Source: a virus
Virus record (IMG/VR): IMGVR_UViG_3300027771_000085
Location: 1-26,049 of that record
Reading direction: 5' to 3' (one strand)
DNA length: 26,049 bases
Positions within the stretch are counted from its first letter, which is position 1. Each line of letters begins with the position of its first letter. The notes under the pieces are model-generated. The model was not told the DNA's origin and searched no databases. It saw only the letters and a list, made by a program, of their open reading frames with translations. The position numbers were made by a program, and so were the translations under genes. Below, one piece after another: positions 1,655 to 23,815 of the stretch.

Positions 1655-2071
1655 ATGATGTCAGAAGAAGAAAACAAAGTAGTGGGTAGTGAGGCGATGA
1701 AGAAGCGACCTAATAATATAGATGAACATTATAATAAAACTGCAAAGTCTTTACTACCTAAGAATAATGAAACAAGACAACTAGCTAAGATGACTAGGAA
1801 GTCTTTAGCTTATGCGCTAGAAGGACAGCCTGTAAAGATTAAGATGGCTTTAGATATACTCTTTGATGATGACCCTCGTGCATACATAGATGCAATAGCT
1901 AAACTAATGAACTATGCAATGCCTAAACTATCATCAACAGAGATTAAAAGAGATTCAGAAACTAAGATTGAGATTAACTTAACTGAAGGTGCAACACTTG
2001 AAGATATTAAGAAACAGATTAGAGGACTTGAAGAAGCAGAAGATATTGACTATACAGAATTAGATGACTAA
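1655..2071 (+). CDS. Probable terminase small subunit
   Basis: This 138-residue protein lies directly upstream of the large terminase and overlaps it by 8 bases, the classic place for the small subunit, which recognises the phage genome and feeds it to the motor. A basic, asparagine-rich N-terminus leads into a helical core with DDPRAYIDAIAKLM (about residues 75-88) and AMPKLSS (about 92-98), a pattern I associate with small terminase-like proteins of Bacteroidota phages, followed by a very acidic tail. No classical helix-turn-helix is obvious. A second in-frame ATG directly after the first could be the true start. The call rests mainly on position. Confidence 0.65.
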   Translation: MMSEEENKVVGSEAMKKRPNNIDEHYNKTAKSLLPKNNETRQLAKMTRKSLAYALEGQPVKIKMALDILFDDDPRAYIDAIAKLMNYAMPKLSSTEIKRDSETKIEINLTEGATLEDIKKQIRGLEEAEDIDYTELDD

Positions 2072-3506
2072 AAAAGCATTACTGAAGTTTGCACTAGAAA
2101 AGAAACTATGTGAGATGAGTTTCTATGAGTTCTTTAAAGCAGCGTGGATAGTAGTAGAACCAGCAGTACCACTTTCTACTAATTGGCATCATAAGTATAT
2201 ATGCGACTTACTACAAGAGGAATGTGAGAGAGTAATAGCTCAGAAGCCTAAAACTAAAGATGTTATCATTAATGTGCCTTTTAGAAGTACAAAATCATTG
2301 ATAGTAACTGTTATGTTTCCAGTATGGGCTTGGATAAAATCACCTAAACTAAGATTCATTACTTCTTCATATTCTGCAACACTATCTATTGAACTAGCAA
2401 CTAAGAGTAGAGATATTATATTTAGTGATTGGTTTAAGAGAAGATGGGGAGATGTATTCCACATTAAGAAAGACCAAAACCTAAAAGAGAGATACGAGAA
2501 CAATTTTGTTGGAATGAGAAGAGCAACATCAGTAGGTGGTACTGTTACTGGGCAAGGTGGGGACTTTCTAATAGTGGATGACCCCTTATCACCACAAATG
2601 GCAAGTTCTGCAACAGAAAGAGATAATGCTAACGAATGGTATAGGACTACATTCTATTCTAGGCTTAATCAGCCTGATATTGGAGTTAGGATAATAATTA
2701 TGCAAAGAGTACACGAAGATGACTTAACAGGATTCTTATTAGGTAAAGAAACTAGATTAAAGTATAAACACATCTGTATTCCTGCTAAAAGTGGAGATGG
2801 TAATATTAAACCAACATATTTAGAGAAGCATTACAACAAAGATACAGGATTGTTTTGGGAAGATAGGTTTAGTCAGAGAACATTAGATGATTACAGAAGT
2901 GCATTAGGTAGTTATGGATATGCAGGACAACTACAACAAACACCTACACCCTTAGATAGTGGAATGATACATAAGGATTGGTTTAAGGTAGATAGATATA
3001 GAGTTGAAGATTCAGTGGTTAATTTCGTAATTGACCCTGCTTATACTGCTGACCAAAAGAATGACCCCTCTGCACTACTAGCATATACCTATAAAGATAA
3101 CAAATGGCAAATAGTAGACTGTGTTAATGTGTATAAAGAATTTCCTGACCTAGTAAAATTCATTCAGCAATGGGTAGCAAAGAATGGATATACAAATAGG
3201 AGTAGAATATATGTAGAACCTAAAGCATCAGGTAAATCTATTGTTCAAACGCTAGTAAGAGAAACAGGACTTAATGTTAAAGAAGATAAACCACCAACTA
3301 AAGATAAGGTAGCAAGAGTGAGTGATGTAAGTGCATCTTTAGAGAGTGGTAGAGTTAGTATCTTAAATGGAGATTGGAATGATGAGTTTCTTGACCAACT
3401 AGCTAAGTTTCCTGCAGCTAAACACGATGATATGGTAGACTGCTTAGTTATGGCAGTAAACAAGGAGATTTGGAGTAATGGAAGTAAGATATTATATTTT
3501 TCATAA
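2064..3506 (+). CDS. terL: Terminase large subunit (ATPase and nuclease)
   Basis: This is the DNA-packaging motor, 480 residues and full length. The N-terminal ATPase has a variant Walker A, VPFRSTKSL (71-79), in which the usual glycine before K-S is replaced by threonine; a GTVTGQGGD segment (159-167); Walker B with catalytic acid, FLIVDD (168-173); and a coupling-type IIMQR (211-215). The C-terminal RNase H-like nuclease has the expected acids: D324 in VIDPAYT, E385 in YVEPKASG and D455/D456 in KHDDMVDCL. It acts at the portal to translocate and cut DNA. It overlaps the small subunit by 8 bases and is followed by a 97-base gap with a hairpin terminator and a new -7 box, so the packaging operon seems to end here. 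Confidence 0.97.
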   Translation: MTKKALLKFALEKKLCEMSFYEFFKAAWIVVEPAVPLSTNWHHKYICDLLQEECERVIAQKPKTKDVIINVPFRSTKSLIVTVMFPVWAWIKSPKLRFITSSYSATLSIELATKSRDIIFSDWFKRRWGDVFHIKKDQNLKERYENNFVGMRRATSVGGTVTGQGGDFLIVDDPLSPQMASSATERDNANEWYRTTFYSRLNQPDIGVRIIIMQRVHEDDLTGFLLGKETRLKYKHICIPAKSGDGNIKPTYLEKHYNKDTGLFWEDRFSQRTLDDYRSALGSYGYAGQLQQTPTPLDSGMIHKDWFKVDRYRVEDSVVNFVIDPAYTADQKNDPSALLAYTYKDNKWQIVDCVNVYKEFPDLVKFIQQWVAKNGYTNRSRIYVEPKASGKSIVQTLVRETGLNVKEDKPPTKDKVARVSDVSASLESGRVSILNGDWNDEFLDQLAKFPAAKHDDMVDCLVMAVNKEIWSNGSKILYFS

Positions 3507-4044: not shown

Positions 4045-4725
4045 ATGGTAGAGATTAAGATTGAAAACAACTCATACGAGATTCCAACAGAGTGGAAAGA
4101 CATTACATTAAGGTATTGGTGTGGATTATACACTATTATCAGTCAATATACGAAAAGAGATGAGGAAGGCAATGTTATTGAGCCTGAACACTCAGAAGTA
4201 GAGTTACTTAAGATGAATAGAGATATATTTATGTATCTAACTGGACTCACTCAGAATGAGATGAACAGACTTGATGTAGATAGCGTTAATGACGCTGTAG
4301 GTACATTCTCTAGCCTTTTAGAGGAATATAAGCCTAAAGGGATAGAAAAGTTTGAATTAGATGGTGAAGAATACTTATTTCCAAAAGAATTTCTAAGAAG
4401 GAACACATTTGGAGATTATATTGAGTCTACTCACTTGGATAGTACAATAGAAATAATGAAACACGGCAGGTTTGATGTATTACCTGAGCAAATGGCAATA
4501 CTTTGCAGGAGAGCAGATGAAGAATATGATGATGATGCAATACCAGCTAAGACTGAGAAGTTTAAAGAATTAAGTATGGATTTCGTTTGGGAGTTCAGTT
4601 TTTTTTTGACAATGCAAAGCGTAAAATTAACTCGGACTTTCCAAATGTTTTTGGGGAAAACAGACGAGGAGGTGGAGGAGGCAAAGGTAGAGTTTCTACA
4701 GTTGGACTCTACAACAAGTTCATAA
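4045..4725 (+). CDS. Tail assembly chaperone, short (G-type) form
   Basis: This 226-residue acidic protein has an N-terminal segment, IPTEWKDITLRYWCGL, of the kind seen in tail assembly chaperones of Bacteroidota phages, followed by a helical body. Such chaperones bind the tape measure protein and help the tail tube grow around it. In the normal frame it continues past a run of nine T's to a glutamate-rich end (DEEVEEAKVEF). The -1 frame stays open across the run for 106 more codons, giving the G/GT arrangement common among long-tailed phages: a frequent short product and a rare fused one. The chaperone identity is inferred from the frame overlap, the acidic small protein and the tail setting. 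It is unusual in being about 7 kb upstream of the tape measure gene. Confidence 0.7.
   Translation: MVEIKIENNSYEIPTEWKDITLRYWCGLYTIISQYTKRDEEGNVIEPEHSEVELLKMNRDIFMYLTGLTQNEMNRLDVDSVNDAVGTFSSLLEEYKPKGIEKFELDGEEYLFPKEFLRRNTFGDYIESTHLDSTIEIMKHGRFDVLPEQMAILCRRADEEYDDDAIPAKTEKFKELSMDFVWEFSFFLTMQSVKLTRTFQMFLGKTDEEVEEAKVEFLQLDSTTSS
4599..4607 (+). promoter_or_regulatory. Slippery site for -1 frameshift
   Basis: A run of nine T's is read AGT TTT TTT TTG in the upstream frame. T TTT TTT (4599-4605) fits the X XXY YYZ heptamer with both tRNAs able to re-pair after a one-base slip back; reading then resumes at TTT GAC AAT. No strong stem lies at the usual 5-9 base distance. A weak bulged hairpin begins about 33 bases downstream and is probably unrelated. 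Confidence 0.65.
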
Positions 4726-4925
4726 AGCCTTATGGATGGCTTAACAGCCTTTATATGGTGGCAGAGAAGGGAATATTTAGAATAGAAGGTTATAATGACA
4801 TTGATAGCGTGAAAGAAACAAATTTATATAAAGTATTAACTTACTTGAGCTACAATACTGCTAAGAACGACTATGAAATTGCTGTACAAGAAAAGATACA
4901 TAATAAAAATAATATAACACCATAA
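4605..4925 (+). CDS. Frameshift extension of the chaperone (GT-type)
   Basis: This open reading frame of 106 codons lies in the -1 frame relative to the upstream chaperone and lacks a good start codon of its own. Read after a slip on the T run, it gives a product of about 293 residues: 187 from the chaperone, then FDNAKRKI, a glycine-rich linker (GENRRGGGGGKGR) and a helical domain (from YNKFIKPYGW to LTYLSYNTA). A glycine-rich linker joining two domains fits a designed fusion. The domain resembles the C-terminal parts of fused chaperones in related phages, with a conserved tryptophan and an LTYLS-type helix (family recollection). If the T run is a sequencing error, this would instead be the true C-terminus. 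Confidence 0.65.
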   Translation, partial: FDNAKRKINSDFPNVFGENRRGGGGGKGRVSTVGLYNKFIKPYGWLNSLYMVAEKGIFRIEGYNDIDSVKETNLYKVLTYLSYNTAKNDYEIAVQEKIHNKNNITP

Positions 4926-4927
4926 CA

Positions 4928-6067
4928 ATGGCAATAACAAGACTAACAGATATAATAACTGTATTTGACAGCAAATGGACTTATGGAGATGTAAAGTTTG
5001 GATATGATGGTGAGGTTAATCAAGACCACGACACCCAATACCCATTAATGCTAGTAAATCCACCTGAATCAATAATGCCAGTAGTATATGATGGTAGAGA
5101 GGAATATTCATTTGAAATAAACTTCTATAATCTATACTCTCAAGCAGCACAATCAGTAGTAACGCTACAGAAGAGATGGGATAACTTACAAGACTTATCT
5201 AACGAATGGTTGGATATGGTACTTAAAAACTACCAAGATGTAACTGTAGAGGCTTATCTTAATGATGAGAGCATTGAGATTGAAAGAATTAAAGATACAC
5301 AGAACGATAAGTTAGTCCAAATCAAGTTAATATTCACAATGAGTGCGTTCACTAAGTGTTTCAGACCTGTATCTAGCTACCCATCAGACTTTGCAGACTT
5401 AGTAGTATGGCTAAGAGCAGATAGTGGAGTAACCTTTGATATACCAACAAAAAGAGTTAGTGCTTGGTCAGATAGTTCAGGAACTAACAATAATATGGCT
5501 CAATCTACTGCAGCTAACCAACCATTAAGAGAAGGATATGGAGGTCAGAACGATAAGGCATACTTTAGCCTTGATGGAACTAATGATTTTATGTTGTCAG
5601 ACAGTAACTCACCTATAACTAGAGAATTTACAATATTTGAGGTTAGTAAGATGAGTCAAGTAACTGGAAATGTTTTCGGATGGAGGAATGGTAGTGCATC
5701 TATTAGAATTGGAATTAATGATGATGGTAGTTTTTATACTAAAGTATCAGATGGTAATACAACACTATCTACAAATAGTTTAACTAACAACGTAGGAGAA
5801 AATCACATTGGAATATTAAAGAAAGAAGGTAAGGATATTAACTCTGAGTATTATGACTCAGCAAACACTATAACTAAAACTGATACTAGCGTAGATTTTG
5901 ATAGTGCATTTTTATTTAATACTGCTCAATTCAGTATTGGCTCTTTTGGTGTTACTGAATATCTATCAGGACAAGTACAAGAAGTAATAGTATATAACAG
6001 AGCATTATCATCAACTGAAATTGCTGATGTTAGGGGTTACTTAAATTTAAAATATAAAATATATTAA
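4928..6067 (+). CDS. Tail protein fused to a LamG-like domain
   Basis: The 379-residue protein has two parts. Residues 1-145 look like a short tail protein recurrent in Bacteroidota phages (from TRLTDIITVF through YPLMLVNPPES to IKLIFTMSAF), possibly a tail terminator or completion protein. From about residue 150 to the end there is a concanavalin A/LamG-like beta-sandwich: LVVWLRADSGV, VSAWSDSSG, FSLDGTNDFM and a closing EVIVYNRALSSTEI. Such domains bind glycans or host surface molecules. A related domain is encoded at 21670-22341, sharing the VSxWSDSS pattern. The gene begins 2 bases after the chaperone fusion ends. The lectin-like domain is well supported, the role of the N-terminal half is inference. 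Confidence 0.7.
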   Translation: MAITRLTDIITVFDSKWTYGDVKFGYDGEVNQDHDTQYPLMLVNPPESIMPVVYDGREEYSFEINFYNLYSQAAQSVVTLQKRWDNLQDLSNEWLDMVLKNYQDVTVEAYLNDESIEIERIKDTQNDKLVQIKLIFTMSAFTKCFRPVSSYPSDFADLVVWLRADSGVTFDIPTKRVSAWSDSSGTNNNMAQSTAANQPLREGYGGQNDKAYFSLDGTNDFMLSDSNSPITREFTIFEVSKMSQVTGNVFGWRNGSASIRIGINDDGSFYTKVSDGNTTLSTNSLTNNVGENHIGILKKEGKDINSEYYDSANTITKTDTSVDFDSAFLFNTAQFSIGSFGVTEYLSGQVQEVIVYNRALSSTEIADVRGYLNLKYKIY

Positions 6068-7843: not shown

Positions 7844-10800
7844 ATGTCAGTAAAAATTGAGATACTAGATTATAAACACGGCACAGGTGATAATATGGCT
7901 GATGTTAATGAAGGTATATTTGGTACAGGATGGACAGCAATATCATCTACAAATGCCGCTTGGGATGGTAGTGGTAATGGAATTACATATTTGAGTGATA
8001 TATCATCACAATCTTTAGTGATAGGTAAAAGCTACAATCTTTCTTTTACGATAACTTCTTATACAGGTACAGGAGATATGGGATTTTCAGCATCTAGTGG
8101 AGTACCTGCATCAGCAAGGTCAGGCAGTAATGGTAATTTTTCTTTTAGTTTTGTCGCTACAAGTACAAGTTTTCCTGATTTATTTGGAAGAAGTACAAAT
8201 GCTGGAAGTATAGGAAACATATCTATAAAAGATGCTAGTACAGTTGATTGGGAAAATAGTGTGGTTGGAGAGTTAGATGTTACTAACCATTCTGACTTTC
8301 CTTTTGCAATGACATTTCAGATTTCAGACTTCAAAGATATAACATCAACAAGTGGTGATTACAGTAAGACATTTAAAATACCTGCCACTAAGAATAATAA
8401 TCAAATATTTAAAAACCTATATACTGCAAATATAGATGTTGATAATAAAGTTACTTCAAAAAAACAATGCAGAATACTTGTAAATAATCTTTACTCTCAA
8501 GTTGGATTAATACAAGTTAATAGTGTTAGTGGTTATGGGGAAAAACCATCTCACTATGATTGTGTATTTTTTGGAAATAATATAACTTGGTCTACAGGAA
8601 TTGAAGATTTATATATAAGTGATATAGAGTGGGGAACTGAAGGTGATGGACTGACTTACACTAAAGATAGTATTGTGGCTACTTGGCAATATGAAGATTC
8701 TAATAATGCGTCTAACTCGCCTATAGTATATCCAATAGCATCTTATGGAGCTTATAATGAGGGAGGTGATGAAAGAACAATACAACTACTAGATACTAGG
8801 TATGGAGCAGGGCAGACAGGAGATTCTTCTCGTTTAGGTTATTATGGAACTAATTTAGCTGGAAATGATTTCGGAACACCACCACCTTCCGCAGATTGGC
8901 GACCTACAATATTCGTTAAACAAACCTTAGAGAAGATATTTTCTGGTCTTGGTGAGGGATTTAAGATAAGTTCATCCTTTATGAATACTGAAATGTTTAA
9001 GAAGTTAGTGTGGTCATTGCCTAATTTTAAATATAATAATCCATCAGAAAGATATAATATACATTCCACTGAAACAAGTTTCACTAATAATGTTGTTTTA
9101 TCGGTAAATGCTAGTTCTGGTCTTCCTGCCATAGGAACTGAAGGTGGTGTTGTTAGAATATACAATGAATCTCTTGATGAAAATGATGGTGATTATTATT
9201 ATAATGGAGATGGGAGGGTTGTTCTTGATATTGACGATATAGTTTCTGACCCATCTTCATATAATATATCGGTAGGATTAGACAATAAACCTAACATTGA
9301 CTTTTCTAGTGATTATATTTTAGTTCCTGAGTATGGTTATTATAATATTAATTTAGGTGGACTAGAAACTAAAGTAGCTAGAGTCTATAAAGGTGGTGGT
9401 GATGATGCGGACGTTGATAAAATATGGAGCAGAGTAGCAGTAGAAGTTCAGACAGTAGGAGAGGGTTTTTGGTCGCCTATAGGAAGTTCAAGTAATGAAA
9501 TGGTTATTAATCAAGATGTAGACTTTAATACTGATGCAAATACTCCTTACGAAGATATGAGTAGTATTCAAATAGAAAGACATTTTTTAAATAAAGGAGA
9601 TAAAATACGAATCACTACAGGTCTAAAGATAACAGCACAAAATAACAGTCAGAATTTTCTTGTGTATATATTTGTTAAGTCAAAAGGTAGTTCTACGTTT
9701 AATTTAGAATTTTCCCCTCTTTATGTTGAGTATGGTCAGACTTATAACTTATCTGATGTAATTAATAAAGACTTAAAGCAGATAGATTTCATTAAAGGGA
9801 TTGCTCACGCATTTAATCTTCAAATGACTACAAATGAAGCATCTAAAATAATATATATAGAGCCTTTTAATGATTTCTATAAACCACTGAAAGATGCTAT
9901 AGATTGGACTTATAAGTTAGATAGAAGTAAGGAAATAAGCGATAAGTGGTTGAGTAGTGCTTTAAACAGAACTATGACTTTTAAGTACAAGAGTGATGAC
10001 GCAGATGCTGTAGTAAAGTACAATGGGGAGAATCTTTTTGATGGTGTACAAGATGAATACCCATATAAAGAAACACTGCCTGATACATTTGATAGAGGCG
10101 AAACTACATTTGAAAATCCATTCTTTGCTGGTACTTATAACGCTAAAGATAACGCTACTACTGGCAACCCAAATGTTAATACTGCATTTTCTGCTTGTTT
10201 ATGGACAGAAAATGTTAATTCTAATGCCGCAGGAAGACCACCTAAAGGATATGATTTTCTACCAAGATTATTATATTGGAATAAATACTCTCCTGCTGCA
10301 ACACCAGCATTTAGCTTAACACCTAAAAGAGCAAGAGTACAAACTTGGAGTTCAGATATAGACCTGATAGCAGCAGATGCTAGTTTGATTGGCACTACTG
10401 CTCTTTCAGGTATATACCCACAAGCAACAATGATTAATAGAGATAGTAATACAAGTCCTGTTTTGTCTTACGGCAATGTTTTTGTAAATAATTATGATGA
10501 CAGTACAGGGTTGTATGGAGCAGAAGAAACAGGAATTGGTTTGTATGAGAAATACTACAGAAACTCAATAGAGATGCTTAAATCTAATCCAAGAGTAAGA
10601 AGCGTATATGTTAATTTAAAAATTTCAGATATTATAAATTTAGATTTTACAAAATTAATTTATATAGATGGTGTTTATTGGAGAATAGGTAGAGTTTTAG
10701 ATTATATGCCCAATAACAATACATCTACTAAGGTTGAGTTAGTTGAATGGCTTACATCACTTGTTTACCCTTATAATACACCAAGATTTAAAGGTAGACC

Positions 10801-10864
10801 TCGTAATTGGGGGTATGGCTCTGGCACTCCTTATGTAGTTCCTGGTTTTACTCACGATATATAG
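7844..10864 (+). CDS. Large tail protein with inserted sugar-binding-like domain
   Basis: This 1006-residue protein is the largest in the window. It opens with KIEILDYKHG and then has a Gly/Ser-rich segment (about residues 20-135) with LVIGKSYNLSFTIT, the pattern of CBM-like beta-sandwiches. The main body follows: WENSVVGELDV and SGDYSKTFKIPATKNNNQIF (171-190), then KKQCRILVNN. The F-IP-T-NN-IF signature recurs in large tail proteins of Bacteroidota phages and prophages (family recollection). The CBM-like part seems inserted near the N-terminus of that body. A tail-tip or host-binding role is likely. The C-terminus (RPRNWGYGSGTPYVVPGF) is Gly/Pro/aromatic-rich. Confidence 0.7.
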   Translation: MSVKIEILDYKHGTGDNMADVNEGIFGTGWTAISSTNAAWDGSGNGITYLSDISSQSLVIGKSYNLSFTITSYTGTGDMGFSASSGVPASARSGSNGNFSFSFVATSTSFPDLFGRSTNAGSIGNISIKDASTVDWENSVVGELDVTNHSDFPFAMTFQISDFKDITSTSGDYSKTFKIPATKNNNQIFKNLYTANIDVDNKVTSKKQCRILVNNLYSQVGLIQVNSVSGYGEKPSHYDCVFFGNNITWSTGIEDLYISDIEWGTEGDGLTYTKDSIVATWQYEDSNNASNSPIVYPIASYGAYNEGGDERTIQLLDTRYGAGQTGDSSRLGYYGTNLAGNDFGTPPPSADWRPTIFVKQTLEKIFSGLGEGFKISSSFMNTEMFKKLVWSLPNFKYNNPSERYNIHSTETSFTNNVVLSVNASSGLPAIGTEGGVVRIYNESLDENDGDYYYNGDGRVVLDIDDIVSDPSSYNISVGLDNKPNIDFSSDYILVPEYGYYNINLGGLETKVARVYKGGGDDADVDKIWSRVAVEVQTVGEGFWSPIGSSSNEMVINQDVDFNTDANTPYEDMSSIQIERHFLNKGDKIRITTGLKITAQNNSQNFLVYIFVKSKGSSTFNLEFSPLYVEYGQTYNLSDVINKDLKQIDFIKGIAHAFNLQMTTNEASKIIYIEPFNDFYKPLKDAIDWTYKLDRSKEISDKWLSSALNRTMTFKYKSDDADAVVKYNGENLFDGVQDEYPYKETLPDTFDRGETTFENPFFAGTYNAKDNATTGNPNVNTAFSACLWTENVNSNAAGRPPKGYDFLPRLLYWNKYSPAATPAFSLTPKRARVQTWSSDIDLIAADASLIGTTALSGIYPQATMINRDSNTSPVLSYGNVFVNNYDDSTGLYGAEETGIGLYEKYYRNSIEMLKSNPRVRSVYVNLKISDIINLDFTKLIYIDGVYWRIGRVLDYMPNNNTSTKVELVEWLTSLVYPYNTPRFKGRPRNWGYGSGTPYVVPGFTHDI

Positions 10865-12145: not shown

Positions 12146-14656
12146 ATGGCAACGAATACAGAAAAAATAGTAGTTCAGGTAGTAGTAAAAGGTGGAAAGC
12201 AGTTAGATAACTTAACAAAAAAGACAGGAACTGCTACTAAGAGTGCTGGTAGTCTTACGAAAAGTATGGTTAAGATGACTGGAGGTATTTTAGCTGCATC
12301 TACTGCATTTAGACAAATAAGTCAATTAGTAGGGAGTGCTATAAAAACCTTTAAAAACTATGAATTTCAAATGGCTAAAGTAAAAGCCATTACAGGTGCA
12401 AGTGAAAAAGATTTTAAAAAATTATCAAATACTGCACAACAATTAGGTCGTTCAACATTCTTTACTGCATCACAGGTTGCCGAATTACAAGTTGCTTTTG
12501 GTAAGTTAGGATTTTCAACAACAGAAATATTAGCAGCACAAGAAGCTACATTACAATTAGCTACTGCAACTCAATCAGACTTAGCTAGAGCAGCAATAGT
12601 AGCAGGTGCAGCAGTTAGAGGATTTGCTTTAGATGCTTCTGAAACTCAAAGAGTAGTAGATGTTATGGCTGTCGCATTTACAAGTTCTGCTTTAGATATA
12701 GAAAAATTCCAAACATCTATGACTAAGGTTGCTCCTATTGCAGCAGCAGCAGATATATCTTTAGAGGCTACTACAGCAGTTATGGGAACACTTACTGATG
12801 CAGGTATTGAGGCTTCTATTGCAGGTACATCTTTAAGAAATATATTTCTTAAAATGCAAGACCCAGCTTCTGATTTATCTAAACATTTAGGATTTACAGT
12901 AAATAGCAGTGAGGACTTAGAAAAAGCATTGACTCAATTAAATGATGAGGGATTATCAAATGCTGAGATGATGGAACTTGTAGATTTAAGGCAAGTAGCA
13001 GCGTTTCAGACTATGGTGAATGGTACTACTAGTATTTTAAGTTTGACTGATGCTTTAGAAGATGCTAATGGAGAGGCTCAGAAGATGGCTGATATAATGG
13101 CAGATACTTTAGAAGGTGATATTCTAAAGGCAAAATCTGCTTATGAAGGTTTTGAATTATCTGTATTGGGGGGTAACAGTAAAATATCAAGGTCATTAAG
13201 ACTTGTAGTTCAGGAATTTACTTCCTTTTTTGGCATATTAACAGATAATATGAGGTCATCTGAACAGTTGGGTGCTGATTTCTTAACGCAATCATTGAAG
13301 AATGTTCAAGCATTAGAAAATGCAGGTAAGGCTGTTCAGAAAGTTCAAAAAGATAATAATATAACTTTAAAAACAAGAGCAGAACTTTTACAAGAAGAAA
13401 TAGATAAGCAAAAAGGTGCTATAAGAGCAGGAGAAGCTTTTACGGATAGTATGAATGAACAATATGAAAATTTAAGTAGAATAGACAAAGACAGAACAGA
13501 CATAAGGCTGAAAGACATAGAAAGAGAAAGACCTGCCAGAGAATTAGCAATAAAGGATTTAAAAGAAATATTAGACATAGAAGTAAAGGCAGAGAAAAAT
13601 AAAAATGACCTATTAGAATTAGAAACTGACATACGACTTGAAAAAGAAAAAAGAGCTAAAAACAAAAAAGATGCACAAGATAAAACAGATGCAGAAAAAG
13701 TAGCAAAAGAAGCATTTAATAATGAGAAAACAAGAATAGATACAGAGGCTAGGGAGTTAAATAACATACAGAAGGAGCTTCTTATTAATGAACAAATAAC
13801 TCAGGAAACTTATGATGTAATGGCTTTTGATGCTGAACAACAAAGACTTCAAGACCAACTTGACCTCTACATTAAATATGAAGAAGATACTTCAGTTATT
13901 AATGGTAAGATTCTTACTAACGAGTTAAAGATGATTGCCGATAAGGCTGCTGCTGATGCAAAGGCTGCTCAAGATAAGTTAGACCAAGATGCACAAGTAA
14001 AGAAAGATAGAGATGAGCAAATAGCAGGTGTTGCACAATTAGGCGACCAACTGATTAATCTTGCAGGTGAGGATAAAAAAATGCAAGGAATTAGAAAAGC
14101 AGGTATTCAAATATCTGCTGCAGCAGCTATTGCTAATAATTTATTAGCATTGTCTAATGCTGCTGTAGGAGTTACAGAGCAGTCAAAATTACTATTTCCT
14201 TATAATCTAATAGCAATGGCGAGTACATTCGCTACAGTTTTTTCGTTATTTGCTAATGTAAAAGCATTAAAAGATTCATTTGGTGATGGTGGTATAGTAG
14301 AAACTTTTGCTAATGGTGGTATGGTACAAGGCAAATCACACGCACAAGGAGGAGAGAAGTTTGCAGTAGGTGGTAGAGTAGTTGAATTAGAGGGTGGTGA
14401 GGCTGTTATAAACAAAAGAAGTACATCAATGTTTTCTAGCCAATTATCTGCAATGAACGCAGCAGGAGGAGGTGTTAAGTTTGCTGATGGAGGATTACTT
14501 AATCAACCTTCATTCTCACAACAACAATTCAATGCTTTAGGACAGAATCAAATGATGGGTGCAATGGGTAACTCAGGTAAAGTAACTGTAGTTGAAGCAG
14601 ATATTACTAACAGTCAGAACACTGTAAGTGTGATACAATCTCAAGCAACAATTTAA
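12146..14656 (+). CDS. Tail tape measure protein (TP901 type)
   Basis: The 836-residue protein sets tail length and is ejected with the DNA. Residues about 70-300 match the TP901-type core: YEFQMAKVKAITGA, QQLGRSTFFTASQVAELQVA, then a long alanine- and threonine-rich helical stretch with TAVMGTLTDAGIEASIAGTS. A charged coiled-coil region follows (about 380-620), then a hydrophobic segment (ISAAAAIANNLLALSNAA and LIAMASTFATVFSLFANV), and a glycine-rich end with GDGGIVETFANGGMVQGKSH, typical of tape measures that lack a fused hydrolase. At roughly 0.15 nm per residue (established rule of thumb) it predicts a tail near 120-125 nm, so a siphovirus morphology. Confidence 0.95.
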   Translation: MATNTEKIVVQVVVKGGKQLDNLTKKTGTATKSAGSLTKSMVKMTGGILAASTAFRQISQLVGSAIKTFKNYEFQMAKVKAITGASEKDFKKLSNTAQQLGRSTFFTASQVAELQVAFGKLGFSTTEILAAQEATLQLATATQSDLARAAIVAGAAVRGFALDASETQRVVDVMAVAFTSSALDIEKFQTSMTKVAPIAAAADISLEATTAVMGTLTDAGIEASIAGTSLRNIFLKMQDPASDLSKHLGFTVNSSEDLEKALTQLNDEGLSNAEMMELVDLRQVAAFQTMVNGTTSILSLTDALEDANGEAQKMADIMADTLEGDILKAKSAYEGFELSVLGGNSKISRSLRLVVQEFTSFFGILTDNMRSSEQLGADFLTQSLKNVQALENAGKAVQKVQKDNNITLKTRAELLQEEIDKQKGAIRAGEAFTDSMNEQYENLSRIDKDRTDIRLKDIERERPARELAIKDLKEILDIEVKAEKNKNDLLELETDIRLEKEKRAKNKKDAQDKTDAEKVAKEAFNNEKTRIDTEARELNNIQKELLINEQITQETYDVMAFDAEQQRLQDQLDLYIKYEEDTSVINGKILTNELKMIADKAAADAKAAQDKLDQDAQVKKDRDEQIAGVAQLGDQLINLAGEDKKMQGIRKAGIQISAAAAIANNLLALSNAAVGVTEQSKLLFPYNLIAMASTFATVFSLFANVKALKDSFGDGGIVETFANGGMVQGKSHAQGGEKFAVGGRVVELEGGEAVINKRSTSMFSSQLSAMNAAGGGVKFADGGLLNQPSFSQQQFNALGQNQMMGAMGNSGKVTVVEADITNSQNTVSVIQSQATI

Positions 14657-17629: not shown

Positions 17630-17666
17630 TAATTACTTTTAAATAATCAAAAAAAAATAAAATAAA

Positions 17667-23384: not shown

Positions 23385-23662
23385 TGTTTCAGAAATGGAT
23401 AGGTTCTATGCTGATGAAGGGAGGCATAACACCAATAACAGAATTACTGAAAGCAGTAAAAGAGTTATTTACAGACACAAAAGGCAAGTGGAGCAGCAAG
23501 AGAACTATTAGTGGTGTGATAGTTTTAGCTGCAAGTCTATATATTGAGAAGAATGGTATTGATACTAATGCTTTAATATTGACAGGATTAGGAATACTTC
23601 CTTTATGTTTCTCAGTATTTGAAAAAAATAATAAGAATAATGACTGTAGTTGCACTAAATAA
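23384..23662 (+). CDS. Holin-like protein with two membrane segments
   Basis: A 92-residue protein with two hydrophobic segments, at about 45-58 (SGVIVLAASLYIEK) and 66-82 (LILTGLGILPLCFSVFE), after an amphipathic basic N-terminal part (GGITPITELLKAVKELF). The C-terminal tail is charged and ends CSCTK. Two membrane helices and small size after an endolysin fit a holin that forms membrane lesions to let the lysin through. GTG at 23384 overlaps the previous stop; an internal ATG at 23411 is an alternative start. Confidence 0.6.
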   Translation: MFQKWIGSMLMKGGITPITELLKAVKELFTDTKGKWSSKRTISGVIVLAASLYIEKNGIDTNALILTGLGILPLCFSVFEKNNKNNDCSCTK

Positions 23663-23757: not shown

Positions 23758-23815
23758 GTATTATATAAGCTTTTTTTTTCGTATCATTGCTATCTAATAA
23801 CTAATACTTTAAGCA

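What the first reader, a model, noticed from the sequence alone, without database searches (positions are those of the whole stretch)
4045..4925. Probable -1 programmed frameshift in a tail assembly chaperone
The frame read from 4045 reaches a run of nine T's (4599-4607); the -1 frame is open across it and onward for 106 codons, without a good start of its own. T TTT TTT fits the slippery heptamer and the joined product carries a glycine-rich linker. Both outcomes look protein-like, as in G/GT pairs. No stimulatory structure is seen at the usual distance, so the long T run may itself be enough.
Basis: partly seen in the sequence, partly recalled or inferred. Interest (0 to 1): 0.65.

Follow-up and report, generated by a model that had tools for sequence, protein, structure and literature searches.

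The report
Tail-protein gene with conserved nine-T frameshift
A virus of Bacteroidota bacteria makes two versions of one tail-module protein through a "stutter" at exactly nine T's; hundreds of related viruses keep those T's, and the pattern suggests that the enzyme copying DNA into RNA, more than the ribosome, does the stuttering.

Summary
T9 lies at 4599-4607 inside ORF 4045-4725 (226 aa), and the -1 frame continues to 4925 (293-aa fusion). It is not a sequencing error. All 85 distinct relatives in the window's family keep exactly nine T's, with no change on a tree of 12.7 substitutions per site. A remote sister family, found by fold and confirmed profile-to-profile, includes the cultured phage P12024S and a prophage in the isolate Galbibacter pacificus. 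There, 195 of 197 distinct sequences have T9 or T10 and the C-domain is always in the -1 frame. No unbroken fusion was found inside these families. Remoter phages (Duneviridae, Leef) encode an apparently equivalent two-domain protein in one frame, which supports the fusion as a real protein. An in-frame heptamer is present, but no stimulatory structure was found, and the run stays at nine or ten T's in all three codon registers. That matches the 9-10 bp RNA-DNA hybrid of RNA polymerase, so I favour transcriptional slippage (about 0.6) over ribosomal frameshifting (about 0.35). The tail-chaperone role is plausible but unproven: the gene lies near the terminase, not next to the tape measure gene.

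The parts
4045..4725 (+). 0-frame ORF, 226 aa: N-domain (about 185 aa) plus a 41-codon 0-frame tail after the T run
   Evidence: N-domain fold of relative L095 mean pLDDT 80.7; profile homology to the P12024S family
4599..4607 (+). T9 slippage site; contains one in-frame heptamer T_TTT_TTT at 4599-4605, followed by two further T's
4599..4922 (+). -1-frame C-domain, 108 codons (FFFDNAK...GWLNSLY...NLYKVLTYLS...), joined to residue 185 to give the 293-aa product; stop at 4923-4925
   Evidence: profile homology to the P12024S-family C-domain, E 4.5e-11
4608..4725 (+). dual-coding stretch; constrained in both frames over the first 15 or so codons, then loosely
   Evidence: parsimony change counts
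4588..4598 (+). GGGAG-like sequence 5 nt before the run; dictated by the codons TGG GAR, GGGAA in 4 relatives, absent from the sister family; not a convincing Shine-Dalgarno stimulator
   Evidence: PMC8710568
3604..4041 (+). upstream neighbour, 145 aa, no family match
4928..6067 (+). downstream neighbour, 379 aa, C-terminal laminin-G-like part; matches a virion structural protein family
2064..3506 (+). large terminase subunit, context
12146..14656 (+). tail tape measure protein, context: 7.4 kb downstream of the slip-site gene

Best explanation
The gene makes two proteins from one coding region: an abundant 226-aa form and a minor 293-aa form with an extra C-domain from the -1 frame. Shown by comparative sequence: the two-frame arrangement, the T9/T10 run and the C-domain are all under strong selection. 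Inferred: during transcription, RNA polymerase slips on the nine T's because its 9-10 bp hybrid is then all rU-dA, and a fraction of mRNAs gains one U. Normal translation of U10 (or U7) mRNA reads into the -1 frame; U9 mRNA gives the short form. Ribosomal slippage on U_UUU_UUU may add to it. Also inferred: the pair works like the lambda G and GT tail chaperones, with many copies of the short form and few of the long form linking tail parts during assembly.
For: T9 is invariant in the window's family. In the sister family, 167 of 197 distinct sequences have T9, 28 have T10, 1 has T8 and 1 has T4; none is fused, and a long N-domain frame stands in the -1 relation to the C-domain in 195. A search by C-domain, which could have found fusions, found none. 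The families are homologous over both halves. Length is kept across registers: NNT TTT TTT TTG (window), NTT TTT TTT T.. (sister), and T10 in all three registers. Sequences that lack the T before the heptamer have two or more extra T's after it in 20 of 22, against 17 of 188 otherwise; the tree needs about 3 separate changes for that state. No T7 was seen, although T7 would suffice for a heptamer. No downstream or upstream RNA structure: mean z about 0 and an empty consensus fold. Published: bacterial RNAP slips efficiently on 9 A or T and its hybrid is 9-10 bp (PMC5009743); 9 is the common avoidance threshold (PMC1088944); the T-run gene mxiE slips 20-30% (quoted in PMC4256274); heptamers without stimulators reach at most about 10 times a 0.055% background in E. 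coli (PMC4066793); Bacteroidia occlude the anti-Shine-Dalgarno (PMC8710568).
Against: No RNA or protein was measured. Every T9 also contains an in-frame T_TTT_TTT. The two T's outside the heptamer are partly explained by coding needs (hydrophobic residue before FF, Leu or Phe in the -1 frame). The compensation test is not phylogenetically independent and could reflect selection on hydrophobic residues. The C-domain is always in the -1 frame, as tandem-tRNA slippage would also give. PRF in Bacteroidota phages has not been quantified, so E. coli rates may not apply. The chaperone role rests on analogy.
Confidence: 0.6

Rival explanations
1. Classical -1 programmed ribosomal frameshifting: tRNAPhe pairs slip on U_UUU_UUU (4599-4605), and the flanking T's are fixed by coding in two frames.
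For: An in-frame heptamer is always present in T9/T10; the relation is always -1; lambda-type G/GT chaperones use PRF (PMC5009743), and two cloned ones gave 6-7% (PMC3711429). Extra T's can be explained by Leu/Val/Ile before FF and Leu/Phe in the -1 frame.
Against: No stimulator. T7 never seen and T8 seen once in about 280 distinct sequences; run length compensated across registers. Unstimulated heptamers are weak in E. coli (PMC4066793).
Confidence: 0.35
2. Assembly or sequencing error in a homopolymer, or a pseudogene; the true gene is one frame.
For: Homopolymers are error-prone; remoter relatives are unbroken, and phage 6H looks broken by such an error.
Against: Hundreds of independent contigs, a cultured phage pair and an isolate genome whose contig title reports 413x coverage all agree; -1 frame conserved past the 0-frame stop.
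Confidence: 0.01
3. Phase variation: replication slippage at T9 switches the long form on and off in the population.
For: T9 can also slip in replication.
Against: No relative has an indel that puts the C-domain in the 0 frame; length is fixed.
Confidence: 0.02
4. The -1 ORF is a separate gene translated from its own start or by reinitiation.
For: P12024S gp39 is annotated that way.
Against: 61 of 84 family members have no ATG in the -1 frame up to 40 codons past the run, and 189 of 197 sister sequences have no Met in the first 45 residues; the T run would have no reason to be invariant.
Confidence: 0.02

Closest known systems
Lambda gpG/gpGT tail assembly chaperones
   Same: Two products, the longer with a C-domain from the -1 frame; phage structural module; no fusion in DNA
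   Different: Lambda uses ribosomal slippage; here T9 and probably RNAP slippage. Gene is near terminase, not next to the tape measure; no strong sequence or fold match to named chaperones
Programmed transcriptional slippage genes: Shigella mxiE, Thermus dnaX, Citrobacter tssM1 (A11)
   Same: Long A/T run, no other stimulator needed, long and short forms; mxiE likewise needs slippage on a T run to make the longer protein
   Different: Those are cellular genes; here a phage family keeps the run across hundreds of genomes. Slippage is shown there, inferred here
Nonlabens phage P12024S gp38/gp39 (annotated as separate hypothetical proteins)
   Same: Homologous N- and C-domains, T9, -1 relation, next to the terminase gene
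   Different: T9 sits in another codon register; identity too low for tblastn; found by fold, confirmed by hhalign
Single-frame proteins of Flavobacterium phage FPSV-F7, laban6-1, Cellulophaga phage Ingeline_1, Polaribacter phage Leef_1
   Same: Apparently the same N plus C domain order in one polypeptide
   Different: One unbroken frame, no T9; remote, homology supported by fold search (6H) and a rough alignment only

Membership tests
Lambda G/GT-type tail assembly chaperone | N-domain alone and N plus C fusion produced through a frame change | tested here: met
   Two-frame arrangement conserved in all relatives of both families; production itself not measured
Lambda G/GT-type tail assembly chaperone | Gene lies between the major tail protein and the tape measure gene | tested here: not met
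   One gene after TerL; tape measure 7.4 kb downstream; similar in P12024S
Lambda G/GT-type tail assembly chaperone | Sequence or fold similarity to named chaperones | tested here: inconclusive
   BFVD hits named 'Tail assembly chaperone' at E 0.15-1; phrog_166 'tail protein' E 0.003 in 6 of 15 sister sequences; PDB none
Lambda G/GT-type tail assembly chaperone | Binds tape measure and tail tube proteins; absent from virion | not testable with these tools
   needs biochemistry
Programmed -1 ribosomal frameshift | In-frame X_XXY_YYZ heptamer | tested here: met
   T_TTT_TTT at 4599-4605
Programmed -1 ribosomal frameshift | Stimulator (3' structure or 5' SD); common but not universal in bacteria | tested here: not met
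   Mean z about 0, no consensus fold; GGGAG not general
Programmed transcriptional slippage | Uninterrupted A or T run of 9 or more, kept for its length | tested here: met
   T9/T10 in all three registers
Programmed transcriptional slippage | mRNA heterogeneous in run length | not testable with these tools
   needs RNA from infected cells
P12024S gp38/39 family | Homology of N- and C-domains | tested here: met
   hhalign E 1.1e-8 and 4.5e-11

The most novel reading that the evidence does not exclude
A large group of Bacteroidota phages sets the ratio of two tail-module proteins by RNA polymerase slippage at a T9/T10 tract, replacing the ribosomal frameshift used by lambda-type phages. Homopolymers at the chaperone-like gene pairs of other flavophages (A9/A10 in Helsingorvirus, A8 in P2559S) suggest this may be a wider habit in hosts whose ribosomes hide the anti-Shine-Dalgarno.
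Probability: 0.55. Interest if true: 0.72.

Novelty: new variant of a known kind. Interest (0 to 1): 0.6.

Why it matters
Tail-chaperone frameshifting is a textbook case of ribosomal recoding. If this group does it at transcription, the same two-product design has been reached by another machine, and the selected quantity (9-10 T's, the length of the polymerase hybrid) can be read from comparative sequence. It gives a testable case of programmed transcriptional slippage in a viral structural module, in a bacterial class where Shine-Dalgarno help is blocked. Annotators currently miss it: in P12024S the two halves are separate hypothetical proteins.

Tried and rejected
Sequence search of cultured phages with the window protein: no match; the link came only through the fold search. 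PDB fold search: nothing. Pfam: nothing. Downstream stem-loop: none by energy or covariation; pseudoknots were not specifically modelled. GGGAG as SD stimulator: explained by the W-E codons and absent from the sister family. The quick +1-frame stop after the run (TGA, TAA or ATT TAG) looked like a guard against one-base loss, but it follows from the -1-frame codons, so I dropped it. Synonymous test at the ninth T: TTT third positions vary little elsewhere too (0-11 changes), so it does not separate the mechanisms. First scan of genome contigs with the N-domain found nothing.

Full report
What is in the window. The window is a 26-kb virus record whose genes are those of a tailed phage: terminase (2064-3506), tape measure (12146-14656), head protease, portal. 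Its terminase is closest to Croceibacter phage P2559Y, 45%. ORF 4045-4725 encodes 226 aa; nine T's lie at 4599-4607, and the -1 frame is open from 4566 to 4925. Re-reading one T joins 185 residues to 108, giving 293.

Conservation in the window's own family. Searches of IMG/VR with the N-terminal half gave 80 contigs and then 7 more, roughly 50-99% identical in protein. Every one has exactly nine T's at the same codon with the -1 frame open for 103-109 codons beyond, while the 0-frame tail varies from 25 to 50 codons. In 84 complete sequences on a tree of 12.7 substitutions per site there is no change in any of the nine T's. The first two bases of the codon before the run changed eight times, and ordinary third positions about twelve times each. 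After the run both frames are constrained for about 15 codons; beyond the 0-frame stop the -1 frame shows the usual third-position pattern. T runs of nine or more are otherwise avoided: 3 seen against about 15 expected in 621 kb.

A remote sister family. The N-domain of relative L095 folded well (pLDDT 80.7), and Foldseek against BFVD matched, among uncharacterised phage proteins, P12024S gp38 (E 3e-4) and Flavobacterium phage 6H gp10 (E 4e-5) (the BFVD entries were matched to these genes by protein length). P12024S gp38 also has T9, with a C-domain in the -1 frame, annotated only in part as gp39. Its relatives have T9 too, with one T10. Profile comparison confirms homology of both halves: C-domain E 4.5e-11, N-domain E 1.1e-8. 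Gene neighbours match as well: phrog_38559 is found in the window (7844-10864, E 4e-14), in P12024S and in the Galbibacter prophage.

A search that could have found fusions. Scanning with the C-domains would reveal any gene in which N and C share a frame. None was found among 159 loci or 197 distinct sister sequences. Run lengths in the latter are T9 167, T10 28, T8 1 (L392), T4 1 (L381). The hits in cellular genomes are all Bacteroidota, including a prophage in the isolate Galbibacter pacificus CAA-3 (contig title gives 413x coverage) with T9. Homopolymer error and pseudogenes are excluded.

Why I lean to transcriptional slippage. A ribosomal -1 shift needs T_TTT_TTT in frame, seven T's; what is conserved is nine or ten. 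The extra T's are supplied in different ways: the window's family has none before the heptamer and two after (AGT TTT TTT TTG), the sister family one before and one after (GTT TTT TTT TAT), and T10 occurs in all three registers. When the T before the heptamer is missing, two or more follow it in 20 of 22 sequences, against 17 of 188 otherwise; parsimony asks for about three separate changes. These counts are not independent, and the same pattern could come from selection for hydrophobic residues, so this is evidence and not proof. Neither family shows an RNA structure around the run. In E. coli, heptamers without stimulators stay within about 10 times a 0.055% background (PMC4066793), while slippage on nine A or T is efficient and matches the 9-10 bp hybrid (PMC5009743, PMC1088944); mxiE reaches 20-30% (figure quoted in PMC4256274). 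Bacteroidia ribosomes sequester the anti-Shine-Dalgarno (PMC8710568), which would remove one usual stimulator, though prfB frameshifting persists there. I put transcriptional slippage as main agent at 0.6 and ribosomal at 0.35; both may act.

Function. Remoter flavophages (FPSV-F7, laban6-1, Ingeline_1, Leef_1) carry what looks like the same two-domain protein in a single frame, so the 293-aa form resembles a normal protein and the 226-aa form is the extra product. A two-product gene in the tail region suggests a lambda-like chaperone pair. Against filing it as a lambda G/GT member: it is not next to the tape measure gene, and matches to named chaperones are weak. 'Works like' is about 0.7 likely; membership is not claimed.

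Novelty. Tail chaperone frameshifting and bacterial transcriptional slippage are both known. In the open-access library I found no report of slippage at a T tract in a phage tail gene or of this family; subscription papers were not searched. I rate it a new variant of a known kind.

Noticed in passing
L031:29009-29018 (Cellulophaga phage phi17:1), L581:1199-1207 (phi18:2), L582:1199-1207 (phi12:1): The overlapping gene pair between the major tail protein and the tape measure gene sits on A10 in phi17:1 but A9 in phi18:2 and phi12:1, with the same second domain; the frame step needed is -1 in one and +1 in the others. Either a sequencing slip or a natural sign of polymerase slippage.
   Followed up: partly
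L030:14747-14754 (Croceibacter phage P2559S): A8 at the end of gp20, just before the tape measure gene, with the +1 frame open for 120 codons; gp20 matches the first half of a 250-residue structural family.
   Followed up: no
L194:10352-10927 minus (Flavobacterium phage 6H gp10): Close relatives encode a 293-aa unbroken protein; 6H ends at 191 aa in a T-rich stretch, probably a sequencing error in that record.
   Followed up: partly
L195:23136-23830 (P12024S gp38 and gp39): Annotated as two hypothetical proteins; they appear to be one two-frame gene joined at T9 (23578-23586).
   Followed up: yes
L381:257-280 and L392:2501-2508: The only two sister sequences with shorter runs (T4 and T8) yet intact frames; are they still expressed, and how?
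   Followed up: no
L183:4101-4109: A second T9 inside the coding frame of the next gene downstream of the slip-site gene in this one relative.
   Followed up: no
window 23771-23779 and 17649-17657: The only other T9/A9 runs in the window lie outside long + strand ORFs (possible terminator tract and spacer).
   Followed up: no
window 4928-6067: The downstream neighbour carries a C-terminal laminin-G-like domain, matched to virion structural proteins; unusual for a gene in this position.
   Followed up: no
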